DNA from: Atriophallophorus winterbourni
Lineage: Eukaryota; Platyhelminthes; Trematoda; Plagiorchiida; Microphallidae
Assembly (NCBI GenBank): GCA_013407085.1
Contig: JACCGJ010015157.1
Location: 1 to 64,000 of the forward strand
DNA length: 64,000 bases
Direction of reading: 5' to 3'
A model generated the notes under the pieces. That model was given only the letters and a program-made list of their open reading frames with translations. It was not told the DNA's origin and did no database searches. Numbering within the stretch: the stretch's first letter is position 1; every line of letters begins with the position of its first letter. A program made the translations under genes and the position numbers. This document shows, one piece after another, positions 2,541-61,870 of this stretch.

Positions 2541-2579
2541 TTGACATACTATATTAAAAAGGCTTTATAAGAGACGCAT

Positions 2580-3712
2580 ACCAAGATTGGAAGACTTCTG
2601 GAAACAGAATTATCTCTGCGCTATCCCTATCTATGCATGCCAAGCATTTCGTAGACCAACTATCGTGGTATTCTTTGACATCCGAGTGGCATTCGATTCA
2701 ATCGATCGCAAAAGTCTTTGGAACTGTCTGCTGAGACTTGGAGTGCCCGAGAAGTATGTTTTGATCTTCAAAGCCAAACTTCGGTCAAGGTTCGAGCGTA
2801 CGGGCAATTGTCATCCCCGTTCATTATCCCCAGCAAGGTGCGACAGTGCTGCCCTATCTCACCGTTCCTTTTTAACTTCGAGATCGACGATGTCATAAGG
2901 AAAGCTTTAGCTGGTCTGGTAGTCGCAGGTGTTGAACTTTTGCCGTGCGAGTGAGCTATCGATCTAGAGTATGCGGAGATGACCCTCATAATGCAAAAAG
3001 CCCTGGACCACCTGGAACTTGAAGCTTCGAGGTATGGCATGTGCTTTGCGCCTAACAAGTGTAAAACACTTACCCAGGATAGGAGCGGATCTCTACAAAA
3101 CCTAACTGTGTGCGATGTTAATCTTGAATTGGTCGACAGCTTTGTTTACCTTGGCAATTGTATCTCTGCTGGCGGTTGTGTCGAAGACGAGAACTCACAA
3201 CGTGTTCGCAAAGCGAGTGTAGCGTTTGCTAACTTTCGCCACTTGTGGCGTCGACGCGATGTTTCACTCCATACTAAAGGCCGGGTGTACAACGCAGCGG
3301 TGCGTGTTACACTACTGTATGGCTGCAAAATCTGGTCTATCAGAGCGGAAGGTGTTCGTCGGCTTTCTGTTTTTGACACATGTTGCCTGTGTATGAGTGC
3401 TCGCATTCGGTGGCAGCATCGCGTCACAAATATAGATGTCTGCAAGTAGGTGTGAGGACCGAGTGGCCACGGACTGAGAGGAATGTTGATGCTTGCTCGT
3501 TTGTGATGGTTCGGAAATGTTTTAAAAATGCCTCTTCACCGTTTACCATACCGCGCCTTATTCGCAGAGCCTGGCAAGAGCTGAGAGAAACGATCGGGTG
3601 GCCAGTTAATGGCGTGGCGCGTTTGAATGAAGAAACTCACCGTAGCGCTAGGCTCAGTTGGGCGTATTCGTTTGCCTGGGTGAGGTCCAAAACTTACGAG
3701 ATATAGCTGCAA
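2580..3712 (+). mobile_element. Decayed LINE (non-LTR) reverse transcriptase, copy 1
   Basis: Remnant of ORF2 of a non-LTR retrotransposon that copied its RNA into DNA at the target site. In three broken frames it shows RT motif A (VVFFDIRVAFDSID, about 2660-2710), the SPFLFNFEIDDVI block (about 2860-2900), the region after the active site (FVYLGNCISAGG, about 3140-3180), and the C-terminal blocks TKGRVYNAAVRVTLLYGC and RRLSVFDTCC. The YADD catalytic box is lost (reads YAEM at about 2965). The endonuclease and N-terminal RT are absent, so the copy is 5'-truncated, with frameshifts near 2800, 2950 and 3450. It is the same family as the copies at 7.4-9.5 kb and 13.6-15.1 kb. The clade (RTE/CR1-like) is inferred from the RT blocks only. 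Confidence 0.85.
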
Positions 3713-4301: not shown

Positions 4302-5003
4302 TCATTGAACATTAGTCCGTACGTTTCTGTACGAACGGCATCGGTGCTTCTTGAATGGGCAATAACGTGCAAAATGCCGTTTGTCACATTGGCAAAACTG
4401 GGATGGAAGCTTGGTGTCTTGATCGACACGGTGATCATTCTGCCGGCTGCTTTGCTGCTTGATTGCTAACACCACCGGCTTATTCTGACAGGGATTTTGT
4501 TCGACCAGCGCAGTGTCACGCTTCAAATTTAGCAGCCTCTGGCATTCGGTTGTTGTTGACGTCATGTTGATTTTCGGATTTTGATCGAGTAGTGACAGTA
4601 GTCTTGTGCGAATCTCTTGAACCTTCTCTGATTGCAGACCACATACTTTTCCTGCATAAGTTACAAAATCATCGCAATCCTGATTGACAAATTTCACGCA
4701 GTTATATCGTCTGTTAAATAAAAAAGACTGTTCGCCAAATATGTCTTTGAAAATTTATTGAAAAATATATTTCAATCTCTTGAACCAAGATTCGAAGGTG
4801 AGACCGCTTTCTGGGTCGTAATTGAATTTGGGGATGCTGTTGATGATTGCATCCACCACTGGGTTTTGTACGTCAGTCTTCTTGTCTTGATAAATAACAC
4901 TTAGATTTTTCGAAAGTGTCTGCATCAAACGGGCTTGAGCTTCTTCGGATTGGCGTTGCTGTTGCTGAAGTATTGATTTTACTTCTTCTGCTGTGATTGC
5001 CAT
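4302..5003 (-). pseudogene. Gag of K02A2.6-like gypsy element (broken)
   Basis: Structural gag polyprotein that would package element RNA. The start MAITAEEVKSILQQQQRQ is followed by a glutamine-rich coiled-coil-like stretch and the block NPVVDAIINSIPKFNYDPE. The frame breaks near 4750 and resumes at about 4697 with FVTYAGKVCGL, then a basic linker and the zinc knuckle. In the knuckle the sequence reads QFCQCDKRHFARYC; against the sister copy (CWQCGEWHFV...) the first cysteine has been replaced, so zinc binding is probably lost. The second knuckle is truncated after HRCRSY. The ATG at 5003 is supported by the parallel leader and gag start in the 60.9-kb copy. Confidence 0.75.
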
Positions 5004-5025
5004 TTCGAATTGCTGGGTTATTTTC

Positions 5026-5037
5026 TCCCCGTCGCCA
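5026..5037 (-). other. Candidate LTR primer-binding site
   Basis: Minus-strand TGGCGACGGGGA lies just upstream of the gag start. Position and TGG start fit a tRNA primer-binding site, and the same TGGCGACGGG is kept at 60897 in the sister element. The tRNA species is not assigned. Confidence 0.5.
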
Positions 5038-5904
5038 AGTTGTTATATATGTACTGCACTACTGTTGGCCCAGCCCGTGTGGTCAGAGAGAACACAACCG
5101 TCACTCAACTCGTGTATTCACCGAATGAAACAGACGTACGTTTCTCTACTGTTTCGAAAAGTTATGTTTCTATCGTGATCGGCTTTATCTCGACCACAGA
5201 TGATGGCATTGCCAATGTATGCGAACGTGCAAGATAGTTTTTTCTTTTATTATTAGTTCGTGATGCGCTGGAAGCACGCGACTCCGGTGGTCACACCGAA
5301 TGCAATTCGACAGAATTGGTAGAGTCTGTCGGCAGCTTTGATGGCTGTGAATGGTTTATCCTCGTCACGGAGGTATATTTTGTGATATGTGCTCCGCAGA
5401 TCTAGAGTACTGAAAACATATTAAATAGCGATATTTTCAACTAGTTGATCGATCTTTGACAAAGGGTAATCATCAAGGTGTGTGAACATGTTAATTATCT
5501 GGCTATAATCCATAACTAACCGCTGTTAGTGACTAAAACCTGAGCCCGCCAGGGAAAGAAGATGGCTCAGTTATACCTTCTTTCAACAATTGTTCAATCC
5601 CCGATCTGATGAAACGCTCATCGACAAAAGAGTGGCATCTGGATTTAGTGACTATAGGCTTGCAATCAGCAAATAAGTTTTTGAAGAGAGTTGGAGGTAT
5701 GACTTTAGCTGGCATAGGTCCACATATAGAGAACGAAAGTTTGAGGCCTCTGAACGGGATCTCGATCATTTCGTACATTGTTCAAGACAAATTAGGTATG
5801 GCTGAACATTTGAATTGTGGATAAACTGACTTTTTATAGCGAATGGGTAGGTAATACAGGCCTTTGGTTTGACTCGTGTGTTCGGTTTTAGCAAGAGTTA
5901 TTTT

Positions 5905-6011
5905 ATAAAAGCTCATTTGCATGCATCTCCATCACACACACCCCACGACCGGTTTCGTGCTGTTTGCACTCATCAGGTAGGGACAGTAGGATCAAGATCA
6001 GCATGCGCTTG
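5905..6011 (-). mobile_element. Short hammerhead-bearing insert with 12-bp target-site duplication
   Basis: The plus-strand 12-mer AAGAGTTATTTT occurs at 5893-5904 and again at 6012-6023, exactly flanking 107 bp that interrupt the gypsy reading frame. On the minus strand the host frame reads ...NKITL before the insert and ITLAKTEHTSQTKG after it, so removing the insert and one 12-mer restores a continuous protease/RT linker. The insert has no coding capacity and carries a hammerhead ribozyme (5941-5982) and a GCATGC near each end. This fits a tiny non-autonomous element mobilised in trans. The family is not one I can name. Confidence 0.75.
5941..5982 (-). ncRNA. Hammerhead ribozyme
   Basis: Minus-strand hammerhead with all core elements. 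Stem I is CCCTAC pairing with GTGGGG (six pairs, one G-U). The core box CTGATGA is at 5970-5976. Stem II is GTGC / GCAC with loop AAACA, and the GAAA box is at 5953-5956. The stem III sequence is the self-complementary CCGG, followed by UC at the cleavage position (cut expected between 5947 and 5946). Such a short palindromic stem III is typical of hammerheads of Penelope-like elements and fluke/schistosome satellite elements, which work best as dimers or co-transcriptionally. Self-cleavage is inferred from the fold, not shown. Confidence 0.85.
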
Positions 6012-6809
6012 AAGAGTTATTTTGTTTTTGCACGGAACTAGTTCCCAAGGGTTCTCACGAACAACTGACGGATTTATGTAGCTCTCAGAGCTCTCAGTAT
6101 CTATGAGAGCTGGCAGTCGGATACCTTTGACGTAAACAACAATGGTTGAATTAGATAGGGATACTGGAGCCACGGAACAGAACAAAGGGGAAACAACTGA
6201 ACTGATCGATGGACGGACAAACAAACTCGTTGAAAATCATCTTTTTCCCACATCCTTTGCAAACAGCTTCTCTGGCAGGACACTTTGATCTTGGTTACCT
6301 AGTTAACCCATAAAAATAACATTTTGCATAGCGGCAGTCACCTCTACGGGCGTATCTGGATGTATTTGTGTCTGATTAAGAGGAATATCATTGCTTGTGC
6401 ATGGCAACCTGTTAGTTTGTGATTCAGATTGTTTGAAAGCTAGTTCGAGTGACCTTGCTGTATCGACTGCTTTCTGGAGGTTGAGTGTTGAATGCTCCAA
6501 CAATCTCTGTCGGGTTACAGTGGACTGAATTCCGCTGATGAAAGCGTCATGAATTGAATCATCTTTATACTGCTCAATACTGACAGCTCTGAAGTTACAA
6601 TCTCTGGCAAGGTTTCGTAATTTATGAGTGACTTGGTCGAGTGATTGACCGTCTTCTTGCTTGCATGTCGCCAGTAAATGTCGAGCTAAGATTTCATTTT
6701 TGGGTTTAACATATTATGCTTCCAAGGTGGAAATGGCTTTTTCGTATGTAGTACAGTTCACAAGTAAATTACAAACATCAGAGGAAACGTAGTTAAACAA
6801 TATTACACG

Positions 6810-7135: not shown

Positions 7136-7399
7136 GCATTCGTCCTTCATGTGTTTGGACCAAGCTGGAGTCTGACTGCCCTTACAGCTATACCATTACT
7201 CCGTATGAAAGCGATGGTTCAATTAACGGAGACTTTAACACGCCGTAATTCTTTTTTCACACCCGGCTTTACATCCTTACAACAAAGTTAGTCGAGTGGT
7301 TGCGATATCGACTTTTTGTGCGACTATCTCCTCCTGGAGGATGAGTCGGCTTCAATTAAGATTCTTGGGAATTTGGGGTACAACGCGGCGTTTTTAGCA

Positions 7400-9480
7400 C
7401 CACTCAGCGTTTGTTCGAGCCAGCTTCTCTAGCCCCACCCTATCTATTTCCCTTTCAAAATATCGGCGGTTCGAGCTGGATCGTCATTCGCACTACTTTA
7501 AGCAAGCACTCTATGACTCTGCTACGGAATGCTGCAAAGTCACTCGTCAACCGTCACACCGCTGGGTCTCTGCTGAGTCCCTCACGTTACTCGAACAGCG
7601 CCATGCCATACTGAGTGGTTTAGAGTATGAGGACGATCGGAAGTGTCTTAGACTCCTAATCAAAGATAGTCTGAGGCGTGACCGTGAGTCTTGGTGGAAA
7701 GAACGCGCCTCGGAGATGGAAAGAGCGTCAGCCATGAACAACATGAGGAGACTTTACCAATTGATTCGTGTCTGTGGCCCTAAGCCGCAAGGTCTGAGTG
7801 AATCCATCCTCGAGGATGACGGCTCGCGCACAACGAGCCTTCACAGACGTTTAGAAAGATGGAGAGAATATTTCTCTCAGCAGTTTAATCAGCACCGTCC
7901 CTCAGACCGCCGACATCACTCAATCCACTTTGCACTGGACCGTGTCGCTAGCCCCGCCCAGTGTCGAAGAAATACGAAGTGAGATCCAATTACTAAAGCG
8001 ACACAAGGCGCCGGGCCCCGACGAGCTCCACCCGGTATTCTTCAAGGAAGGAGGCGAGGCAGTCGTAGTAGAATTGCGCGAGCTGTTCTCAAAGTTTTGG
8101 GTGGATAAGAGGGTAACTGCCTCCTGGGGTGAATCGCTAGTAATACCAGTCCATAAAAAAGGAGCACGGAACGAATGCTGCAACTATCGCGGAATTTCGC
8201 TCATTCCGGTGGTAGCTAAGATATTGGTCGCCATCCTCCTTCACAGACTTACCCCGATTCGTGAGGGCACTTCTCGCGAACAGCAAGCTGGTTTTCGACC
8301 AGGGCGCGGATGTGTAGACCAGATCTTCGCTCTGCGACAGCTGCTAGAACATCGTCACCTGTATCGGCGACCTACCATTGTGGTGTTTCTGGATATCAGA
8401 GCCGCCTTTGACTCAGTTGACAGATCCGCCCTATGAACTGCTTATTTCGCAATGGAATCTCATTGAAGTACGTCGCTATCCTAAAGGACCTATACGCACA
8501 CTCGATAGGGAGGATAAGGGCGTACGATAGCCTTTCCATGCCATTCAGCACCACTACGGGTGTAAGGCAAGGCTGTCCAGTCTCCCCGTTCTTGTTCAAT
8601 TTCGCCATCGAGGACGTCCTCCAGAGTGCTCTCAGTAGTTTCTCCACGGGTGGCGTTGAGCTCCTACCAGGTGAGCGGGTTATGGACCTGTACTATGCTG
8701 ATGATATTGCCTTATTTTTGCCCAACATTTATCCAGCAAGCATTGGATATAATGGCAATTGAGGCATCTGAGTATGGGCTGTTCTTCTCGCCAAGCAAGA
8801 GTAAAGTGCTCCTTCAGGACTGGTCTGGTGAACTGCCAAAGTTTGGTATAAATGATCTGATTCTCGAGCATGTCGAGCAGTTTAAGTACCTAGGAAGTCT
8901 GGTGATTGCTGGGGGTCGGCTAGAGCTTGGAATTAAAGGAAGGATATTTTCCACCTCGGTAAGGACAGTATTGCTATACGGGAGTGAATGTTGGACAGTT
9001 CGCTCAGAAGATGTTAGGAGGCTTGAGGTCTTCGACCAACGTTGTCTGCGAAGGATTGCTCACGTACGGTGGCAGCACCACGTTTGCAACTCTGAGGTCA
9101 GGCGCCGCGTCTTAGGAAGCAACGGCACTAGCCTTCAGACAGCCATTAACCGACGTCGTCTCTGCTGGTTGGGGCACGTCGTGTGCATGAAACCCGAACG
9201 GTTACCACGCCGAGCGCTTTATGCGTCAGCTGGTACAGACTGGAAATAAGTGGCTGTCGGTCAGCCACTAACATGGAAGAGTGGCTTGAAAAGGCTCACT
9301 TCTGGTTTAGCTAGGGTTGGACGAGCGCGCTTGCCTGGATTGTGTGCAAGAGAAGGTGAGAGTGTATGGCTCGACACATTGGCAACGATGACAATGAACC
9401 GACATCAATGGAAAGAGTGCATCATCTCTATTACTCCATGACATTTTCCTGTCTTTCAAATACTTTACAAATAAAAAAAT
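7400..9480 (+). mobile_element. LINE (non-LTR retrotransposon) ORF2, copy 2, best preserved
   Basis: Region between endonuclease and RT (WWKERASEMERASAMNNMRR, about 7690-7750), then RT blocks: KAPGPDELHPVFFKEG (about 8005-8050), NYRGISLIPVVAKI (about 8180-8225), QAGFRPGRGCVDQIFALR (about 8283-8337), motif A FLDIRAAFDSVD (about 8386-8421), GVRQGCPVSPFLFNFAIEDV (about 8558-8618), an intact YADD box (about 8692-8703), FKYLGSLV, and the C-terminal RRLCWLGHVVCM block (about 9155-9190). Frameshifts lie near 7960, 8430 and 8740, and a stop follows DWK at 9247. Compared with copy 1, about 25 residues are missing after GGRLE. The endonuclease is missing, so the copy is 5'-truncated and dead, but it is the youngest-looking of the three. 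Confidence 0.88.
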
Positions 9481-13042: not shown

Positions 13043-13445
13043 TTCATCATTGACAACATTACACCGGTACCAAGTGCTTAACTGCCATACAACCATTACA
13101 TAATAAAATATTCTGAAAGATATTGGGAAGGGTGGGACCCAAAAAATTACTGAACCTATAAAAGATTAGGTACAGACACAATGGGATGATGTGTATACAA
13201 CTCGAATCAAACATGCATTCAAGCAAGTGTTGTGAATGAGTATAACGGCATCAGCATGACAGCTCCCTTGCGGCTTTCACTGTCACACATCATAACAAGC
13301 TTTTATGCCACTTCACTTAACAACAGACAATATCAATCAAACACTCCAAGATGTCTACAACAAGACCGCCACGGAACATGATTTTGAGCTATATCACTAA
13401 GGATAAGAAGCCATTGCGAATTCTCATCTTTTGGACCCCAATCAG
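13043..13445 (+). repeat. 410-bp dispersed repeat, copy 1
   Basis: This stretch aligns along its whole length with about 26935-27345. Shared landmarks in order are TAACTGCCATACAACCAT, GGGTGGGA, ACTGAACCTATAAAAGATTA, CAGACACAATGGGATGA, GACAGCTCCCTTGCGGCTTT, AATCAAACAC and GAAGCCATTGCGAATTC. No open frame is kept. The CCTATAAAAG block is TATA-like. Nature of the element unknown. Confidence 0.7.
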
Positions 13446-13559
13446 GGAGACGGGTCGCACCAACCGCAGCTAGTTTAGCAGTCAAAGCCTTTATCTGGAT
13501 TGGGGCAAGTCAGTGTCTGGACACCGTTACAACGACGCCATTCCGAGTTGAGTGGTAAG

Positions 13560-15122
13560 CAAGCCCGCGTTAGGAATACGATGATTTCCCATTCGCAATA
13601 CGTGGATTAACCAGCGACGTCTGTGTATGTTAACTTGTTTTTCGATGTCTTCATCGTACGGATAGTTGCGTTACGTATCCGTTGGTGCAGGGACAACGAT
13701 TGTTGAATACCTGCAGACGTCTTATTTCTTCCTATCTTATTGTCCAAGTTTCTTATCCGTACAATAAAACCGCTCCTACTGTAGCTTTATAGACTCTACC
13801 CTTGAGCTTTAGAGACAAACCTGTTTGACCCGAGTTACGAAAAGCTACCGTAACTCTGGAAATGCGAACTAGTAATGCAACTACCCAAATAGGTAATACA
13901 GTCGCAAGTTCCTCATTATTGAGGCTTAGCGCTCTTTCGACCGAATCAATATCCTGTAACAAAACATTGCACTTGGAAGGTGCAAAGCGCATACCGAAAG
14001 ACATGATACTCCATAGTCTGTCTAAAGTAGACTGAGCATCTGTATAAGAATAGAAGAGTAGAAATACATTGTCTGCATAATCTAAATCACAAAGTCTCTT
14101 ATTGCGACCTATCTGAATGCCCGGTATCGGTACGCATGCATTACATGCATCCATTACAAAATTGAACACTCTTGTCGGACACCACTAATCGCAGAAAAGG
14201 TGGCTAACAGGGTATTGTACGCCATAACGCGCCCGAAATATGTTAACGTACTTTTGGTGGACATCTATGAGTAATAAGGTATTAAATAATGAATTCCTAT
14301 CGACCGAATCGAAAGCACTCTTAAAATCAAGAAAGTTCGCGACAGTGGGCTGCTCATAGGCATGACGATGTTCTAGGGCTGGCCGAAGATTGAATATGTC
14401 GTCGACACATCCTCTACCGGGACGAAATCTTGCTTGCTATTCACGAATCTGTGATGCGCCAAAGACATACTGAGACAAGAAGCCGGGTAATACGGACGTG
14501 AGGCTTATTCCTCTGTGATTAACGCATGAAGTACACACACATTTGTTGAAAATAGGTATGATTATAAATTCTCCCAAACACTGGGGAATAGTTTCCGTGT
14601 CCCATACCTGACGGAAAAGATCAACTAGAGTGCTTAATAGAATTTCACAACCCTCCTTGAACAGAACAGGGGTCAGTCCATCAGTACCAGTGCCTTAGAT
14701 CTTTTCATTGACTCAATACCGAACTTGATTTCTTCTTCGCTCGGAGGCGTTAAATAAACTGACCAGGGTTCAAAACCAGAAATGAAAGGACATTGAACCA
14801 TCTGCTGCTGGTCAGCAAAATTGCTCATGAAAATGCTCCGTCCAACGAGACATGCGGTGCTCTTTTTTAGTGATTAAGGCATCATCGTTCTTTGTGGTTG
14901 TCTCGCTTACTTCAATGGTTTTATAACATGTAGATTGAATTAGCTGAAACAGTTTTCAGAATCGCTGGCTACCTCCATTTCCTGAACATTTTGCAGCCAC
15001 CACGCTTCTGTATCTGATCGAATGCTATGCGTGAGATTATTTCTGACGCGTCTTCGTTGCGCATTATATTGCGAACCAAAAGGAATCCTTCGCCTTTCTA
15101 TGGAAGTGGATTTATTTGTGAT
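13560..15122 (-). mobile_element. LINE ORF2, copy 3 (decayed)
   Basis: Minus-strand copy of the family at 2.6 and 7.4 kb. Right to left it has the linker (RRRVRNNLTHSIRSDTEAWW, about 14990-15060), PSEEEIKFGIESMKRSKA (about 14710-14760), GLTPVLFKEGCEILL (about 14640-14680), NHRGISLTSVLPGFL (about 14480-14520), FRPGRGCVDDIFNLR (about 14385-14430), motif A NFLDFKSAFDSVDR (about 14300-14340), and the active-site region with DYADN (about 14085-14100, second catalytic Asp replaced by Asn). The C-terminal block VGAVLLYG is at about 13755-13780, then degraded text to about 13560. Stops break it between blocks. No endonuclease was found. Confidence 0.85.
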
Positions 15123-35830: not shown

Positions 35831-36739
35831 CCTGTCCAGTTTTCTCTAGTCCTTTCACAGGGGTTATTTTTACCTCAACATTTACTCTCCCGTCCCTTCA
35901 AGTTCAAATGTATGTATTTGTTCGTTTGTTTAGCCTTCTGACACTATGCTTTTTGTGGCGTTACGTTTTCTATTTTTTCCGAATTCGTTTGTTCTTATTC
36001 TTTATTCTTTAATCCTGCTGTGCGCAAAGGGCAATTTGCATTGATCCGTGTCTGCGCGTGTTTTTTTTTGCATACCCTGTTGCTCAATGTTCTCTTGATC
36101 CGTTTCGCGTAGCGCATTTATACCCACTGTCTCGTTGCTCAGACACCGTTCAATTGCCCCTCGCCCCACTTCCCCGTATTCTATATGTTTGTGTCAGACG
36201 CAGTTCTCTCATTATCATGGCTGTTTTAGGAATGATGCTAATTTGTTTCTTTCTACCACGTTGTTCCGCTGCTTTGTATTTGCTTCCTGAACTCGAATTG
36301 TCTCAATGTTGTTGATATGGTGTGGTAATGCATTCTTTTCTCATTTTATTGCTCGATTTACGCTAATTCGAGCCCATGTTTGGGATATACCAAAGTGATA
36401 TGTAAATGCCTGGTTTATGATAAATTCCTTTTCTATACATCTTGTCGTTGGGTTATTACTGGGATTTTGTTTTGGAAAAATTTGGAAGTGTATTCTCCGT
36501 TGCCGTACTAGTGTGCAAAGCTGAAATCACCAATTCGTTACACTTGAGGTAAACCGAACTTTGCAAACGAGAACGCTGTTATTATTGATTTTAGGCCGTG
36601 ATGAGAGCCAGCTCTCGATCACTCACTTAAGAAATAACGTTTAAGGATTAAGCTTCTAAGTGGAATAGAGCGTGCGTGGTAGCACTCGATTGGAATACGT
36701 TTGGGACCGATCGTTTGTTCATTATGCTAAGAAATTTGA
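35831..36739. other. 3' UTR/intergenic, nothing else recognised
   Basis: T-rich sequence after the zinc-finger gene, probably including its 3' UTR. The open stretch at 36058-36315 has no motif. Confidence 0.5.
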
Positions 36740-37353
36740 GTGCAATCGGTTACAGTAAGTTTTGGGTAACGTTTCCCTTCTGACACAGAAGCTTCGTCAG
36801 ACAAAGGTTGATAGTCAGACCAGGGAACATGACTAAGTAGCAGTCAACCCACCACCTCTGTTTCTACTTCACCGCAAAACAGCCTATTGTAAGCCTAAGG
36901 GTCATCGCGTCTTGTAGATATGACTAGGGTCAATGTTCGATTTGCCTAATTCATGCACATCAATCTAATACAAGTGAACCTGGTCAAGTTCGGTTGACAC
37001 TGGCCCACAAGCGTAAAAGTAGATAATTTATGCGGTTAAGTTCAAACAATTGTAGAAGGAAAAGAAACAAATCTAATTAACTTTTGGGTCCAAGATGAAC
37101 ATGAGCTATTTGCGTTCGCATCAATGCTGAGCGCCAGATTGTGCAGACTTCTGCCCCACCCACCTTCTTGACTGCCAGCCTTTGCTCTGTCGACCGCCTC
37201 CGCTTGCAGGCGTTCGCCATATTGTTTAATACCGCGTCTTAACACCACGCTGTCTAGATCAACGCTGTGGATTGTATCTAAACCGTGCTCCGCCAAAGCG
37301 GAATGATGAATAAGAAATTGATATTCGCTCGCATCTCGGGGATATTTTGGCAC
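36740..37353 (-). mobile_element. Penelope-like retroelement 3' end (GIY-YIG tail plus hammerhead-like terminus)
   Basis: A minus-strand frame (37353 down to 37042) contains HHSALAEHGLDTIHSVDLDS, then VLRRGIKQYGERLQAEAVD, which resembles the end of the GIY-YIG endonuclease domain of Penelope-like elements (SAVAEH..., basic R, ...EA). It is followed, at about 36840-36750, by a tail also found twice at 55.3-55.6 kb that folds like the hammerheads reported in Penelope-like element termini. RT is absent, so this is a heavily 5'-truncated copy. The assignment is by motif order and is moderately secure. Confidence 0.55.
36762..36806 (-). ncRNA. Hammerhead-like motif (degraded)
   Basis: Minus strand: CTGACGA (36794-36800), stem II CTTCTG/CAGAAG with a short loop, GAAA (36772-36775), then CGTTAC. 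Stem I is weak (TTTGT against ACCCAA), so activity is doubtful. Confidence 0.5.
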
Positions 37354-37590
37354 GCTTACTTGGAACAGTTTACCTTCAGCTGTTGCTCACGCCACTAGCT
37401 TGCATGACTTTAAAACGAAATTAGACGAATTTTTATTGTATTATTCGTTTCCAGAACACTTATATACTGTTTAATCTATGTTCTTATATTGTTTATACAC
37501 TTAAATTTCAATTTTTACCATCCTATGGTTGTTGTTAAGCTTGTTGCTTTTTAGCCCATTAAAAACCTTGAATTACCTTGATTCTATTCT
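37354..37590 (+). mobile_element. LINE 3'-end fragment (CR1/jockey-like)
   Basis: Starts with WNSLPSAVAHATSLHDFKTK then LDEFLLYYS, the usual last block of CR1/jockey-like ORF2 (WNxLP...SFKxxLD). It ends with an AT-rich UTR and CTTGAATTACCTTGATTC repeats. Only the last 40 or so codons remain. Its left edge abuts the Penelope-like remnant. Confidence 0.65.
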
Positions 37591-37924
37591 GAAGTTCCCT
37601 GGAAATCTGCTCCATGTAAACACCAGGGCATTTGATTTTGTAAATGCTGTTCGTAACGCTGGATAAAGGTGTCTTATCCTTGAGGTTCATCAGATCCGAA
37701 CGGATAGTTTTCCCTTATATGTTACATGTACGGACGCCTGGTTCAAGATTCTACTTATCGCTTTAGATGTGCCTTTGATATAAGGTATACAAACTCTCAT
37801 AAATTTTTCTCTGATGGTACTTTTAGCTTTTAAACGCAGTGGAATTAGGCGCCAGACAAATGATATTAAGCAACGTCGTATTGAGTAGTGTCGCTAACGT
37901 GAGGTAGATGATTACTTCCGATTT

Positions 37925-47865: not shown

Positions 47866-50800
47866 AACGAAACACATGAGGTCAAAGGACCTCTTCAAGT
47901 TGCGATGTATGTCTGCAGTGTCGAGCGGGTTTCTTACAAACCCAACATGCCAGGTTCATTCTAGTTTAAGGTGTGCTCATATCCCTTTCACGTACAAACC
48001 TCAACTGGTTACCGTCTGTTTGCTGTCGTCAGGTGAACACAGTGAGATTAGGTTCATTAAACCTCATTGAACCCCGGTTTCAATTTTAATGCCATCGAAA
48101 GTTTAGGATAGGACCAACGAAGCAAACAATATTTTTTCATTATAGCTTTATATTGTGTCGCATTACCAATCACAACTAATTTTAGCTCCTTGAATTTTCA
48201 CCTTTAGATGAAGTAAATGTAAGCAATAGTAAAAAACCGGCAGAGTTACCAGATCAAATTACGAATCGATAAATCTTAAGGCCCATTTTCACAATCACTG
48301 CTTTATCGCAATCTGATTAGGAAACCAATTACTAAATTTTGAACGGAGATAAATCATGAATACCTCAGTTTTAAGTAGGAGAAGAATTTGATTGGAACAG
48401 TTGAACAGTAAATAGATAATAGAATAACGCTATTGGCGTGTTTAGGTATAGTGGTAAATGAAAAACTATTTGCTCGTTAATACTACGTCATTAGTTTTCG
48501 CGACTAGATTACTACTCTACAATAACTTCATTTGTGTCAACTTTGAAGTAGCGGAGGAACTCCTAGAACATTGATCTGTATAAATAGCACAAAAAATCCC
48601 TCACTATAGTAAGCTCACTTGACAAATCCTTATAGATGATAATACACACAGCAAGAACAAACATGCTTATTTATCCATACCATATATACAACTTTAATAC
48701 GCACTTTGTTTCGTTCGCACGATCATAGAGAAATATTTGATCAACTAGCGTCAAAGTTGAAAAATAAGACAAATGGTAGGGGGCGTGAAAAGAATATCAG
48801 AGGAGTTAAGATTGGCTGGAGCGAATTTTAACCACATTTATTTTGCTGCAATCCCAAACATTATCACACGCGTATGCCTTGCGTTGGTTGTCTACTAAAA
48901 GTAAAATCGAAAAGCCGAAAGGACATGATTTCACCAGTGACAGAGTAAGTGTCGATGGACTTGATTACGTAGAAACAAATCTGTCACGTATGCCTCGGGA
49001 TCAGTTTTCCGTGATGCATGTAAGATGCCAGAGCACAAATCTAGACAGATAAATTTTCGTCTATCATCTCCTGGTTGCTAAATGGAAGTACAAGTTAAGG
49101 CGTAACAGTCAAAATAATGTTTATTTAATGAACAGAGCACCAGAAATCAATCCCTCCGGTATCTAACATACCAACATCCCAATAGGTACTGCTTAAAATG
49201 CTACGGCGTCATTCGATTTTCCATTCCAAGTAAGCTATTTTCTCGTGTTATGTTGAAAACGTTTAACCTCAATGAGAAACGAATATCCCATTCTATCCTG
49301 AGTCAACGCGAAATTTGTTCACAATGGCTTATCATGGTTGTATTTATCAGTTAGACTGGCTTTCCTGTAAAGTTTATTGCTTTTAGACATAACAAAAATA
49401 AGCCCACTAGTACTTGAATATACAGGCTCTTCAATTCATCTCCGAGTAAAGATTATCGGTTCGCAAATTTCGCATATAATAGATGGCAAATCTTCGATTA
49501 CAGCTTGGCTTGTGATTGTATGACAATAAAGCATCACTAGGTGTTATCGGCATAATACTTACATTGATGGTGTGTTTGTCTATATTCACCAGAGATTCCT
49601 GCTAAACAATATTTCAGTTGAAATCGCGATTGCCCCAGTCAGTAGCATACCTTCCCGCGAATGTTTTGAAACCCATTTTATTTTTAACAGTCTAAATCGC
49701 TCACCACAAGTAAACGACAAGTGATTGCTCGATTTTGAATCCATTGTCAGAAAAGGTTGGTACATCGAATATAGAATCACAAAGTGACTCCGAGTCAACA
49801 GCCCAGCCGCACTGAAATGCCACTTACAATCTAACGGCAAGGTTACAGAGCTATTTGAACCGAAGTAGTGAGTGAGTTCAAGAGATAATTCGTGTTCAAG
49901 ATTTATGGCTGTGTGACACAACCAGAGGAATGCACGATGTAGTAAATACATAAATCGAATCTTCGATCGGAATTCGATAGGAAAGTTTCAGTAGTATGAG
50001 CTGTTTTCTTGTATATCAGCGATATTAATTTTAATTTACTAATGAAATATACCTATGTGTGATACAATAATATTCGATTAATGAACCACTCAGAGCAAAC
50101 AGCATTGGACAGTGGGGCTTTGACATTATTAACTATTGGGTGTAGATATTAATTATTTTTGTATGGCTAGATCGCATGCGCAACAGATGTGCGTGATGAG
50201 ACATTGTTGTATTCAACATTTTATATTGTCTGCAAGTTCGTGTAACAAAATTAAACATTTGAGAGTCGCTCATAATAGAAAAAGTGGAGGAAGTCAATCC
50301 TAATTCGGACTTGGACCCACTCTATTGTATTTCGGAGATCGTGGCAAACGAAGAGTATCGACCGAAACTTCCTCGGAAATGTTCATAATTTCTGCCTGGA
50401 ATCTTCACTGGCTACGGTCGTGGCTAGCGCGTTCGCGAGTGGAAGAAACACCAATGATTACTGGAATCCCAGGTAAGACAAGACTACGGGAGAAATGGTT
50501 TCCACGATCAGCGGTTGTGTCGTTTCTCTCGCACAATGAAATAGCGAGATAGACACGGCAGGGTGTTTCTGAGCTACTTGGTAGCATGTACACGTTTAGC
50601 AATATTTCTTCTAGATCTCTTTCATTGTGTACGGATAATTTAAACAATCATGGTTTGTCAAGGTGTGGCGAATCACGAATCACGGCTTGTATGAAAATCG
50701 ATGCCATATAAAAATCTGTATGTATGTCGTAAAATTAATGAGGTGAACTGTTTGTTTCAGCAATCTTAGCGTTTATTAGATTGAAACTACATACTTTTCG

Positions 50801-55342: not shown

Positions 55343-55359
55343 TCGGTTATAGCAAGTTT

Positions 55360-55403
55360 TTGGTAACGTTTCGCTTCTGAACACAAAAGCTTCGTCAGAC
55401 CAA
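55360..55403 (-). ncRNA. Hammerhead-like motif, left arm
   Basis: Minus strand: stem I TTGGT/ACCAA (5 bp), CTGACGA core (position 7 tolerates C), one extra A, stem II GCTTTTG/CAGAAGC (7 bp) with loop TGTT, GAAA box (55369-55372), then CGUU, which is palindromic with the preceding A and gives a UU cleavage position. A good fit to a hammerhead with minimal stem III; the extra A before stem II is a weakness. Confidence 0.6.
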
Positions 55404-55511
55404 GGGTGTTGGTACGAACAGTGTTCAGGTTTAAATGGCGTCTATCTTAGCAAACTCAGGATTGGTCAAGAAAATTCCATTTAAACCTGAACACTGTTCG
55501 TACCGACACCC

Positions 55512-55555
55512 TTGGTCTGACGAATTATCTGTGTTCAGAAGCGAAACGTTACCAA
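55512..55555 (+). ncRNA. Hammerhead-like motif, right arm
   Basis: Plus strand: TTGGT, CTGACGA (55517-55523), GAAA (55543-55546), CGTT, ACCAA. The 5' strand of stem II has mutated to ATTATCTG, leaving about 4 pairs, so it is weaker than the left arm. Confidence 0.5.
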
Positions 55556-55572
55556 AACCTTGCTATAACCGA

Positions 55573-58379
55573 TTCATTGCAAACTTTATTTTCATGATTA
55601 TTGACTCCCGATCGGCCTCGAATATTTTCAAGAACGAAGCTAGCCATAAGATCCAAGCACAAAGAATATGAGCGTTGCGATCTCTAAATAATCTAGATCA
55701 GTTAGTTAATGCCACTGCCAAAGTTTAAGAATGCTAAAATGTTAAAATTGTTGTGATGACAAATTAAAAAGCAGCGGCATTAACATTATCGTACGAGAAT
55801 GTTGTACGTTGAAATGTAAAAATTCCACAAAATCATAGCTCCATGATGCTGTATAATAATTTGAGAAATATTCAATCTGGAAGAAGAGGCTCTGGAAATA
55901 AATTGCACAAGAGCTCAAGCGTACTAACAACTCACGTGGAATGCGTCATATAACTAACACTAGCAAGACATAATTCAGAATAAATGATTTCACATTTGTT
56001 CAATCTTGTTCCAGCGATAATATATCGTGGCCAAGTAGCAGATCTTGATGACAGTTCAGTCCGTGTTGTGATCATTAAGGTGTCAGTGATTCACTATTCG
56101 TGATGAGATTCGGCTTCATTGTGTGAGTAACAAGTGAAGTGATATCGTCTACACAAGGTGGAGATTATCAGAAGTCTGACTGTTGATCTCTTTGGGCGAT
56201 GTCGACCAAAGTCTAGACAGTTGAATCTCGTGTTAATTATTCTCGAAACGGAACTCAACTTGTGGCGGCTTTTTCCTTAAAAGGTTTGCCCATAAAGATA
56301 TTCTATTTAATGCACATTCAGGGTACTATCCTTCATGAAGAATTGGAAAAATAAACGTGAAACTAAGTACAGTTTAGCATTGTAAATATTAGTGTTAACT
56401 CATTTATGTTCGAACACCACTAGCTTCGTAGTAAGAACAATAAAGATGTGATTTTTTATGGAACAACCGCAAATTCATCGTTACAGCTTTGCTATTTTCT
56501 TACTGCGTGTTCCTCGATTCTACGTGCAAGTACCTTCTGCTTTTTCGAACGTGCAGTAAAAACTCAAAAAAGTTTTCAAACTTTTCCAGTTTCGCACTTT
56601 TTATGAATTTAGTATGCCACTCATTTATTATGAATTCTCGCATCTCTCCTTTTGTTGCGACGTAATGTTCACAGATATATGAGCACCAGAATTCAACTTG
56701 TTATATTCGCTTAGATACCTCAACCAGACACACAATATTGAAATAATATTTTACTTCGCTTGTTACGACAAGTGCCTTTCTGCAACTGTAAACAAACCTC
56801 AAAAACAGATTGCTCGCCTTAGTGTACTGCGTTGTACGTCGAATCCCAAATCTCCTATTGCTTCTGACATGTGTTTTTAATGTTTCCTGTTTTATAGATC
56901 GAAGGATTGTTCACCAAATCTGATGAACATTAACCACCCTAGACTGCAAACCCTGCTATAATTGAGGGTGAAATTTCAGTCGTTCAAAAATTGCACACCC
57001 ACCAACCACTAATAAACTAATCCTTATTTCAGAACACAACTTTCAAGAATATTGACTACGATCATCAAACAGCCTGGACGATTTAGCTGTTCTTGAATTT
57101 CAATACATTTTCGGCACGAATCATGGAATCAAATAAACAGAACTTTGTGAAAAGCTTTAATCGTATTATTTCTAATGCGCGTGATGTATTTATTATTAAC
57201 ATTTGAATTACGCCGCGGCGTTGAATGTTATAAGCATATCTAATGCGGTAGATAAGTCACAGATCTCAAGGATTCGAGGAAGCACCGAAAAATATAAAAA
57301 ATAAAAGCAAAAGCGGATGAAACTAAACAAGTTGAGCGTTTAAACCACATATATGTAGATGGGGTAAATCCACGTGTGAGATGGAGAAAATGTATGTAAA
57401 TCAGAATTTTTTGGATTAAAATATCAAGAATTTCACCAGGCTCAATAAATGTCTGCTTCGTGGTTAACCTATTAGCGACTGAGAACATAACTCATCAAAC
57501 ATAATCAAAATTATCAGCTTCACGTTAATACTAAATTTCTTTTCGATTGAAGTTAACCGGAAAATAATTTGACAATCCATCAACAATGGGTTTTAATTTG
57601 AGCCCTGTTCTAACCCTCTGTAAATCTTTCATCCTTTAACATAATTAGGTTACGACTGTTCTCCTGTTAGCGTAATTATACGCTGGGATATTAACCTCTG
57701 GAAATATGGAATGGGTACAAGAATCGAATATTCAGCCAGAACAGTTGCAGGTACTGGTGGTGGCGTGGTGCATATGGGAAGTGAATATGAATACGTTGCT
57801 GAACGCAGATGAAACGATTCCGTACGTAGCAGCCTAAACCATTAGCTATAAATTAACAAGAATATGTCTTAGTAACAGTCAACTGCCTAGCGAAACGGAT
57901 ACAGCTATTTTCATTTTCAGCGGTTCTGGAGCGTATAATAAGCGTAGAAATCATTAAAAATTTCTAGCAGATTGCGTTATATGGAATTCAGGCGGATTTT
58001 TAAACTACTAAGTTGCAAATGTTTAGAGTCATTAGCGACCTGGAGTTCTAATTGGTATAGCGGACCTTGTTGTCTTGAGTTGCGTCTGCATGAATAATAG
58101 TTTAAATTATCAACAAAATCTGTTGAGTTAAAACGCCACCCCTTCCGGTTTAATTATTCAATCTCATTTAATTTATTTGTAAAGATAAAAATGTGCACAC
58201 ACGAAGCTCTGACTCAAATGGCTGAAGTTGTGTCACTCTATTTCTAAAAGAATATACAGATTCTTCTTGCACTTAATCGCAAGAAATAACATAACACAAA
58301 AGTATTTGACCCCGATAAAATCATAATAAATACCGCCCATTTGCTTGAATATATATACCGTTGCTGAGCAAGCTGCAAG
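55573..58379. other. No gene recognised
   Basis: AT-rich. Short open stretches (55742-55930 minus, 56698-56880 plus, 57240-57488 minus) carry no recognisable motifs. Confidence 0.5.
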
Positions 58380-60717: not shown

Positions 60718-60896
60718 CAAACCGTGTCCACGGTCAAAACGCACACACTGGGCATTTGGAACTTGGACTCCCGATCAACGTTCCATTTCAGCCTTGTTCT
60801 GTTTTCCTGAATTTTAGGTTATGAACAACGCATAGATTGATAGAACGCAACGACCGTCTCTGCTGCAACATCGACGATAAAACCATCATAACAATT

Positions 60897-60908
60897 TGGC
60901 GACGGGAA
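60897..60908 (+). other. Candidate LTR primer-binding site
   Basis: TGGCGACGGGAA, identical in its first ten bases to the site at 5037-5026 on the minus strand, and like it close to the gag start. Confidence 0.5.
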
Positions 60909-60942
60909 TAAAAGAACCCAGCAAAACGAACTGGCAATCACA

Positions 60943-61870
60943 GCAGAAGAATTGAACTCAATACTTTAGCAACAGCAACGCTAATTTGAAGAAACTCAAG
61001 CCCGTTTGATGCAGACTCTTTTGAAAAATCTGAGTGTCAAATCCGAAGACATGAAGACGGATGTACAAAACCCAGCGGTGGATGCAATCATCAACAGTAT
61101 CCCAAAATTAAATTACGCCCGATAAAGCGGTTTTACCGTCGAATCTTAATTCACGCGTTTCAAGGATATTTTCCAATCCGAATTCAACAACACTGATGAT
61201 GGCGGAAAAACGAGACTGCTGCTGAGAAACCTGGGCATCTTGGAACATGAGAAGTCTATCAAGTTCATTTTGCCGAAATCCTCAAGTTCATTTACTTTTG
61301 ATCAGATTGTACAATTTTTAGAGGAAATTTTTTGTGAACTGTCTTCTTTGTTTAATAGGCAATATAATTGCATGAAATTGGTCAAGGAGTATTGAGACGT
61401 TTTTGTGACGTATGCAGGGAAAGTTAATAGAGCATGTGAACGGTTCAAGTTCAAAGATATGACTGAAGACCAATTTCGCTTGTGGTTTGCATTAGAAAAA
61501 GACCAATACATTCGCATGAAACTGTCGAGGCTTGATCACGACCTGAACATCAACATGATGTGAATCACAACGGAATGCCAGAGACCGCTAAATTTGAAGC
61601 GCGGTACTGCATTGGTCGAATAAAAACCCTGCCAGAACGAGCCGGTGGTTTTAGCCGTCAAGCACCGAAGCAGCAGCCAGATTGGTCAACGACGCGATCA
61701 AGACGCCAAGCCCCCACCCAAGTGTTGGCAATGTGGCGAATGGCATTTTGTGTGTCATTGCCCATTCAAGAAACACCGATGCCGTAGGTGCAACAGAAAG
61801 GGGCATAAATAAAATTACTGCCAAGCGAACTATTTTAATCAGAAATCTGTGTTCGATCATTTCTATAACA
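60943..61870 (+). pseudogene. Gag of K02A2.6-like gypsy element (broken)
   Basis: Same gag as 4302-5003, but here the start ATG has become CTG (60943) and stops occur early (an in-frame TAG at about 60968) and at 61394 and 61560. The C-terminal double zinc knuckle (61730-61825) is better kept than in the other copy: CWQCGEWHFVCHC (C-x2-C-x3-H-x4-C), then CRRCNRKGHK and a stop before NYC. A zinc-binding RNA-packaging role is known for the family. Confidence 0.75.

What the first reader, a model, noticed from the sequence alone, without database searches (positions are those of the whole stretch)
5893..6023. A ~107-bp hammerhead-ribozyme element inserted in a gypsy pol, with a perfect 12-bp target-site duplication
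Seen: a complete hammerhead core on the minus strand (CTGATGA, 4-bp stem II with 5-nt loop, GAAA, self-complementary CCGG stem III, UC cleavage position, 6-bp stem I) inside a 107-bp block bounded by AAGAGTTATTTT on both sides. The block splits the protease/RT linker of a CsRn1-like element, and the reading frame joins across it if it is removed. Known: hammerheads occur in schistosome satellite elements, Penelope-like elements and retrozymes, usually in longer units. Inference: this is an unusually small mobile RNA, possibly copied from a self-cleaved monomer and integrated by a helper retroelement.
Basis: partly seen in the sequence, partly recalled or inferred. Interest (0 to 1): 0.88.

Follow-up and report, generated by a model that had tools for sequence, protein, structure and literature searches.

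The report
Truncated retrozyme insert with hammerhead ribozyme
A 107-base self-cutting-RNA sequence that jumped into an old retrotransposon is a shortened copy of a common 235-base repeat in this genome, and the way its copies are inserted points to a Penelope-type reverse transcriptase as the machine that moves it.

Summary
Window 5905-6011 is a 107-bp insert with a type I hammerhead on the minus strand, flanked by a perfect 12-bp duplication, splitting a gypsy-like pol; 20 of 20 sister pol copies fetched (of 38 listed) have an empty site.
It belongs to a mobile family: 1,386 and 4,040 first-look candidates in the 537-Mb genome for block and full unit (40 scored each).
But 107 bp is not the unit. 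The block is positions 1-107 of a 235-bp repeat that also forms head-to-tail arrays (26 near-full units listed on C4286): the build of a metazoan non-LTR retrozyme. Solo 107-bp copies recur without forming one lineage. The block spans the cleavage site, so its template was uncut or religated.
Insertion resembles Penelope-like elements (PLEs): 10-15-bp duplications (12 of 48 distinct loci; control 1 of 600), preferred 3' ends, many head-to-head double inserts. PLEs with long open frames abound; one has the same build with a 13-bp duplication.
Two end patterns seen first held only weakly in a second sample. Cleavage, circles and helper are untested.

The parts
5905..6011 (-). 107-bp insert = positions 1-107 of a 235-bp retrozyme-like repeat unit, RNA sense on the minus strand
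   Evidence: search of own genome and unit mapping; 95.4% to a real genomic unit over 108 bp
5941..5982 (-). type I hammerhead ribozyme core (stem I 6 bp, stem II 4 bp, stem III only as ACCGGU palindrome)
   Evidence: Rfam RF00163, 1.1 bits under the gathering score; cofold of two copies gives the double-hammerhead pairing
5946..5947 (-). expected self-cleavage site (between 5947 and 5946)
   Evidence: position of UC before stem I, read from the sequence; not tested at the bench
5893..5904 (.). target-site duplication, copy 1
   Evidence: single copy in 20 of 20 empty sites (one of them with a mismatch)
6012..6023 (.). target-site duplication, copy 2
6024..6304 (-). gypsy-like pol, protease side of the interrupted target (decayed; stops present)
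   Evidence: 149 first-look candidates in own genome for 6024-6236, 40 scored; no Pfam match of its own
5256..5892 (-). gypsy-like pol, linker and reverse transcriptase side of the interrupted target (decayed)
   Evidence: RVT_1 at 5256-5420, E 4.4e-6, under gathering score

Best explanation
The block is a 5'-truncated genomic copy of a metazoan-type non-LTR retrozyme: a non-coding repeat of about 235 bp with a type I hammerhead that needs a partner (ACCGGU stem III) and so would cut efficiently only as a dimer, for example in multimeric transcripts. Proposed cycle (inferred): read-through transcription of arrays, dimeric self-cleavage, possibly ligation to circles; a PLE protein (GIY-YIG endonuclease plus reverse transcriptase) nicks AT-rich DNA, starts cDNA inside the repeat at preferred sites (near unit position 107, less often near 205-224), copies towards the RNA 5' end and stops at variable points, some of them at the 3' foot of a predicted hairpin. 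When only one strand is used, a simple truncated insert results; when both are used, a head-to-head pair. A start near 107 and a stop near position 1 give the 107-bp form. Shown here: insertion, duplications, empty sites, many copies, arrays, end positions, head-to-head inserts, presence of PLEs with long open frames. Inferred: cleavage, circle, identity of the helper, cause of the stops.
For: Family in own genome; unit and arrays. Duplications: 12 of 43 distinct loci against 1 of 600 pairs of flanks from different loci; five loci first left out by hand give none, so 12 of 48; five of the twelve surround head-to-head inserts (L044, L057, L061; L148, L161); seven from the first sample are 76% A+T (63 of 83 bases; window 58%). 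3' ends: 32 of 51 segments in unit 97-124 and 10 of 51 in 205-220 (L058 a near-duplicate included); in a second sample fetched after these windows were set, 14 and 1 of 27, 13 and 1 of 25 without a duplicate locus, P 3.5e-5. Head-to-head: 10 of 31 distinct loci and 6 of 19 distinct loci of the second sample, plus L152 with such a join and a third piece. PLE in the same genome: 150 scored of 9,753 candidates, open frames up to 825 aa (the query piece matches Pfam GIY-YIG at E 0.0024, under its cut-off); L107 has a head-to-head piece, a 13-bp duplication and an extra tail of about 40 bp on one side only. Literature: a purified PLE cuts and extends both strands at AT-rich DNA and starts internally at two sites (PMC11167929, parts 1-2 of 4 read); rotifer PLEs have head-to-head pseudo-LTRs, 8-10-bp duplications and an optional tail (PMC3846280, passages read). 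Empty sites: 20 of 20. Dimer: cofold -32.3 against 2 x -14.1 kcal/mol.
Against: No compensatory changes: 0 of 31 pairs with a change on both sides in 37 copies; pairs decay as in shuffles, so the fold is not supported by covariation (block copies of the first sample are mostly about 95% like the window's). The best single-molecule fold of the block is not the hammerhead core itself but has three extra pairs in it. One short and one long end in head-to-head inserts: 6 of 10 in the first sample, only 1 of 6 in the second. 5' ends at hairpin feet: 13 of 17 simple ends of the first sample, P 1.2e-6 (post hoc, list picked by hand, ends inside the block and head-to-head loci left out, L045 overlooked and would make 14 of 18), but 5 of 15 in the second, 4 of 13 without the duplicate, P 0.05. 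36 of 48 loci show no duplication. The PLEs examined do not carry the 235-bp unit in their own terminal repeats, so the link to PLEs rests on likeness of insertion, not on shared sequence. The unit's G+C of 46% is over one published bound (<45%, PMC7229834) and under another (<50%, PMC7761336).
Confidence: 0.7

Rival explanations
1. The 107-bp form is an element of its own: a closed hammerhead rod (stem I extended to the ends) that moves as a 107-nt RNA.
For: Nine distinct solo copies in the first sample have nearly the same two ends (unit 231-3 and 104-112); the RNA folds as a closed rod, -37.3 kcal/mol, z -2.9, 2 of 200 shuffles as good.
Against: The nine do not group: 8 label changes against a shuffled mean of 8.2, one-clade test p 0.024 (tree poorly resolved, starred branches force only 1 change); the same letters occur inside full 235-bp units; no tandem 107-bp array was seen in the loci read.
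Confidence: 0.1
2. The repeat is moved by a LINE (non-LTR) reverse transcriptase, not by a PLE.
For: LINE-like coding pieces seem to exist in the window (mutually similar open frames at 2545-3706, 7398-9438 and 13321-15098; weak DUF6451, E 0.0077; the label LINE is my recall); target-primed insertion with 5' truncation and duplications of this length is known from LINEs (recalled).
Against: Head-to-head inserts in 16 of 50 distinct loci of both samples are the usual PLE build (PMC3846280); no A-tail or simple repeat at the 3' ends by eye; a PLE insert in the same genome has the same build.
Confidence: 0.18
3. The block is a MITE: a short DNA element with terminal inverted repeats (AAGC-GCATGC / GCATGC-GCTT) moved by a transposase.
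For: The ends of the block pair with each other.
Against: Duplication length varies from 10 to 15 bp; 5' ends of the family vary widely while 3' ends cluster; head-to-head and chained units.
Confidence: 0.03
4. The block is simply a fragment of a PLE (a solo pseudo-LTR).
For: PLEs carry type I hammerheads with a palindromic stem III; a hammerhead-like motif is seen in the PLEs of this genome too.
Against: That PLE motif is a different sequence (ACGU at stem III, my reading). The 235-bp unit has no BLAST match in L107-L111. Of 30 PLE loci, two hold the already known copy L039/L040 and one a 29-bp match; of 10 further loci two have a unit beside the PLE (L112, L116), as a junction and not as part of it.
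Confidence: 0.08

Closest known systems
Metazoan non-LTR retrozymes (Cervera and de la Pena 2020, PMC7229834; review PMC7761336)
   Same: Type I hammerhead, non-coding tandem units in the published 170-400 nt range, arrays plus dispersed copies, weak stem III
   Different: Stem III here is only the ACCGGU palindrome; the family shows dispersed truncated and head-to-head inserts with duplications, which the passages that I read do not describe; circular RNA not tested here
Penelope-like elements with minimal hammerheads (Cervera and de la Pena 2014; Lunse et al. 2017; seen only as citations in PMC7761336, texts not held)
   Same: Dimer-type hammerhead, head-to-head inserts, duplications of similar length, preferred internal start of reverse transcription
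   Different: No ORF; unit sequence not shared with the PLEs of this genome that were examined
Schistosome W elements and the SmAlpha family (PMC8490949, abstract and passages read)
   Same: Flatworm satellite-like repeats with hammerheads, putative mobility, one possible target duplication reported
   Different: No sequence comparison was made here; W-chromosome arrays of schistosomes (recalled)

Membership tests
Metazoan non-LTR retrozyme | Type I hammerhead motif | tested here: met
   Rfam RF00163 end to end, E 2.5e-4 over the window, but 1.1 bits under the gathering score; strict core pattern kept in 28 of 38 distinct copies
Metazoan non-LTR retrozyme | Short non-coding units (about 170-400 nt) in tandem, from dimers to long arrays | tested here: met
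   period 231 in L056; on C4286 26 near-full and one partial match head to tail, starts 233-240 bp apart, list cut short
Metazoan non-LTR retrozyme | No LTR, primer-binding site or ORF | tested here: inconclusive
   unit too short for a sizeable ORF and 235 is not a multiple of 3; LTR, PBS and PPT not searched for
Metazoan non-LTR retrozyme | G+C under 45% (PMC7229834) or under 50% (PMC7761336) | tested here: inconclusive
   46% in one real unit: over the first bound, under the second
Metazoan non-LTR retrozyme | Self-cleavage and circular RNA in tissue | not testable with these tools
   no RNA data; cofold of two copies predicts the double hammerhead
Penelope-like element | ORF with reverse transcriptase and GIY-YIG endonuclease | tested here: not met
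   no ORF in the unit; PLE ORFs lie elsewhere
Penelope-like element | Head-to-head terminal repeats within one target duplication | tested here: met
   five head-to-head inserts with duplications: it inserts like a PLE without being one

The most novel reading that the evidence does not exclude
PLE reverse transcriptases are the helper of animal retrozymes: in this genome they copy the hammerhead RNA from internal start sites on one or on both nicked strands, and the end positions of possibly thousands of dispersed copies record start sites, stops and head-to-head joining.
Probability: 0.52. Interest if true: 0.72.

Novelty: new member of a known kind. Interest (0 to 1): 0.55.

Why it matters
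Animal retrozymes are known as arrays and circular RNAs, but which enzyme puts them into new places is open: the 2020 review (PMC7761336, passages read) names PLEs and Terminons as likely candidates from co-occurrence and says that the repeats show no conserved motif that would reveal the helper. Here dispersed inserts with duplications, preferred ends and head-to-head joins, in a genome rich in PLEs with long open frames, give a readable record of the insertion reaction and a concrete prediction for an in-vitro assay.

Tried and rejected
Search for relatives outside the genome: core pattern in GTDB genomes and IMG/VR gave 29 places without the stems; a stricter pattern in IMG/VR gave none; the RT-side peptide gave no relative in IMG/VR and the protease-side peptide no homologue (3 candidates, none at E 0.01). 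Weak second copy in the window at about 47980-48070 minus: alignment score 26.5 against a maximum of 23 in 12 simulated windows, but no match to the 235-bp unit at E 0.01 and no direct repeat beside it; dropped. Covariation: none. L116, where a unit lies before a 5'-truncated PLE, looked like a template switch; about 37 bp of filler lie between and no duplication was sought, so it is not used. Ends near the cleavage site (unit 62-65 in L043, L044, L048/L049, L051) looked like cut RNA ends, but the letters run 1-4 bases past the cut and the second sample shows none there; not claimed. A 5' end at exactly position 153 (L041, L072, L074) returned in L142 and L145. One row (L052:927-1029) was left out of the alignment A1 by hand.

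Full report
Observation. Window 5905-6011 (107 bp) lies between two perfect copies of AAGAGTTATTTT. On the minus strand it holds a type I hammerhead: Rfam Hammerhead_1 fits end to end with 32.9 bits (gathering score 34; E 1.2e-6 in 301 bp, 2.5e-4 in the window). Stem I has 6 bp, stem II 4 bp with a 5-nt loop, and stem III exists only as the palindrome ACCGGU, which cannot fold on itself. The same core pattern in public bacterial and viral contigs gave 29 places, none with both stems of 4 bp or more. Two copies folded together give the double-hammerhead pairing at -32.3 kcal/mol, against 2 x -14.1 alone. Folded alone, the whole block is a closed rod, z -2.9, with three extra pairs in place of the open core.

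Insertion. The flanks are a decayed gypsy-like pol on the minus strand. The frame before the block ends in KITL, the frame after it begins in KITL, and 119 bp (block plus one repeat) explains the shift. RVT_1 is found downstream, under its gathering score. In the own genome (537,331,230 bp, 15,840 contigs) the protease-side flank has 149 first-look candidates, 40 scored. One of the 40 (C1544) carries the same insert and is 99.4% identical to the window over 3,449 bp, so I take it as the same event. Of the other 38 I fetched 20, chosen across the list before seeing their target sites: all 20 have one copy of the 12-mer (one with a mismatch) and no insert. These copies are nearly identical to each other, so they are not 20 old independent witnesses.

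Family. The block with its repeats (131 bp) finds 1,386 first-look candidates, 40 scored, 43 matches: two at 100% (window and C1544), 38 over about the block at 93-98%, three partial. With flanks, 22 of 31 distinct loci continue beyond the block on at least one side into one and the same further sequence: the block is positions 1-107 of a unit of about 235 bp. The full unit (a real copy, L063:525-759) finds 4,040 first-look candidates, 40 scored, 167 matches (list cut short), among them long head-to-tail arrays: 26 near-full units and one partial on C4286:1-6278, 84-91% to the query, and a similar array on C12235 that may be the same array again. Of 38 distinct block-length copies, 28 keep the strict core pattern. 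There is no covariation (0 of 31 pairs with a change on both sides in 37 copies): dispersed copies decay without visible constraint on the fold.

Anatomy of dispersed copies. First sample: the 40 scored places for the block, 39 fetched loci, 32 after removal of duplicates, 31 counting L056/L058 as one. The query covers the block, so copies that start or end inside it are under-represented. 3' ends: 32 of 51 segments end at unit 97-124, 10 of 51 at 205-220. Nine distinct copies (window/L038, L040, L046, L060, L062, L064, L069, L071, L076) start at unit 231-3 and end at 104-112: the 107-bp form recurs. They do not form a clade (8 label changes, shuffled mean 8.2; one-clade test p 0.024; the tree is poorly resolved and its well-supported branches force only one change). 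Ten of 31 loci hold two segments joined head to head, with gaps of up to 35 bp. Second sample: 20 loci from the unit search, 19 distinct, fetched after the windows for the ends had been set. 14 of 27 outer 3' ends fall in 97-124 and 1 in 205-220; 13 and 1 of 25 without the duplicate locus, P 3.5e-5. Three end at 224, just outside (one of them uncounted, near an edge). Six of 19 loci are head to head, and L152 has such a join too. Results that did not carry over well: one short and one long end in head-to-head inserts, 6 of 10 at first and 1 of 6 later; 5' ends at the 3' feet of predicted hairpins (153, 183, 234, each +-4; hairpins), 13 of 17 simple ends at first (hand-picked list, see evidence against) and 5 of 15 later, 4 of 13 without the duplicate, P 0.05. 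Position 153 itself recurred (three loci, then two).

Target duplications. With one rule for all (exact 10 bp or more, or 13 bp or more with one mismatch, up to 14 bp outside or 10 bp inside the mapped ends), 12 of 43 distinct loci show one, against 1 of 600 pairs of left and right flanks from different loci. I had left out nine of the 52 loci: two duplicates, two that run to an edge, and five with many pieces; these five show none, so 12 of 48. Lengths are 10-15 bp; seven from the first sample are 76% A+T. L157 lies 12 bp off the mapped end and is the least sure. Five surround head-to-head inserts (L044, L057, L061, L148, L161), so such a pair is one insertion, not two. Divergence of about 5% should have blurred many duplications; target deletions may account for others (inference).

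Template. The block crosses the cut site (unit 65/66), so this copy cannot come from a cut linear monomer; an uncut multimer or a religated circle can give it. Many copies run across the unit border, which fits either.

Helper. The own genome holds many PLEs: 150 scored matches of 9,753 candidates to a piece near one of the copies that resembles GIY-YIG (Pfam E 0.0024, under the cut-off), with open frames up to 825 aa. Their terminal repeat has another hammerhead-like motif, with ACGU at stem III by my reading, and lacks the 235-bp unit. PLE L107 has an inverted head-to-head piece, a 13-bp duplication (TAGGTCTAACATT) and an extra tail of about 40 bp at one side only; in L108 and L111 the same look found no duplication. 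This is the build described for rotifer PLEs (PMC3846280, passages read: inverted pseudo-LTR, 8-10-bp duplications, optional 31-bp tail, head-to-head most frequent) and fits the purified PLE protein (PMC11167929, parts 1 and 2 of 4 read: cuts and extends both strands, AT-rich targets, two internal start sites). The retrozyme copies share head-to-head joins, duplication length and a preferred internal start. Hence my best reading: PLE enzymes insert this repeat in trans. LINEs remain possible; I did not search their 3' ends.

Known or new. Metazoan non-LTR retrozymes are defined by type I hammerheads in 170-400-nt tandem non-coding units (PMC7229834: first of six parts and passages read). This family meets the hammerhead and tandem-unit tests; G+C and absence of LTR are inconclusive; RNA features are untested. 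PMC7761336 (passages read) suggests PLEs or Terminons as helpers from co-occurrence. I found no paper on this family in the listings of searches (PMC open library only); the two key PLE-hammerhead papers are not held, so prior sight of these motifs is possible. After the recount I lowered the main confidence from 0.72 to 0.70 and the novel case from 0.55 to 0.52, because the second-sample counts shrink without the duplicate and the duplication share falls to 12 of 48.

Noticed in passing
window 55343-55434 (-) and 55507-55574 (+): A small head-to-head pair of PLE terminal-repeat pieces (79-84% to PLE L107). The Rfam hit MIR6425 at 55396-55519 (40.9 bits, gathering 142) lies on it and is probably just this palindrome.
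   Followed up: partly
window 36681-37815 (-): Decayed PLE fragment, about 80% to PLE L107.
   Followed up: no
L112 (C258) position about 134; L116 (C12785) 2005-2224: Retrozyme copies directly beside PLE ends: one abuts what looks like the PLE 3' tail, one lies upstream of a 5'-truncated PLE with about 37 bp of filler. Possible template switching.
   Followed up: partly
G000 C4286:1-6278 and C12235:55-6687: Long head-to-tail arrays of the 235-bp hammerhead unit; each begins at or near the start of its contig and fills about 6.3-6.6 kb.
   Followed up: no
window 60882-61840 (+) and 4305-5058 (-): Two related gag-like pieces of gypsy-type elements, 77-84% alike in DNA; the piece 4758-5042 matches DUF7083.
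   Followed up: no
window about 47980-48070 (-): Weak likeness to the hammerhead block (score 26.5, maximum 23 in 12 simulated windows), perhaps a decayed hammerhead of another family.
   Followed up: partly
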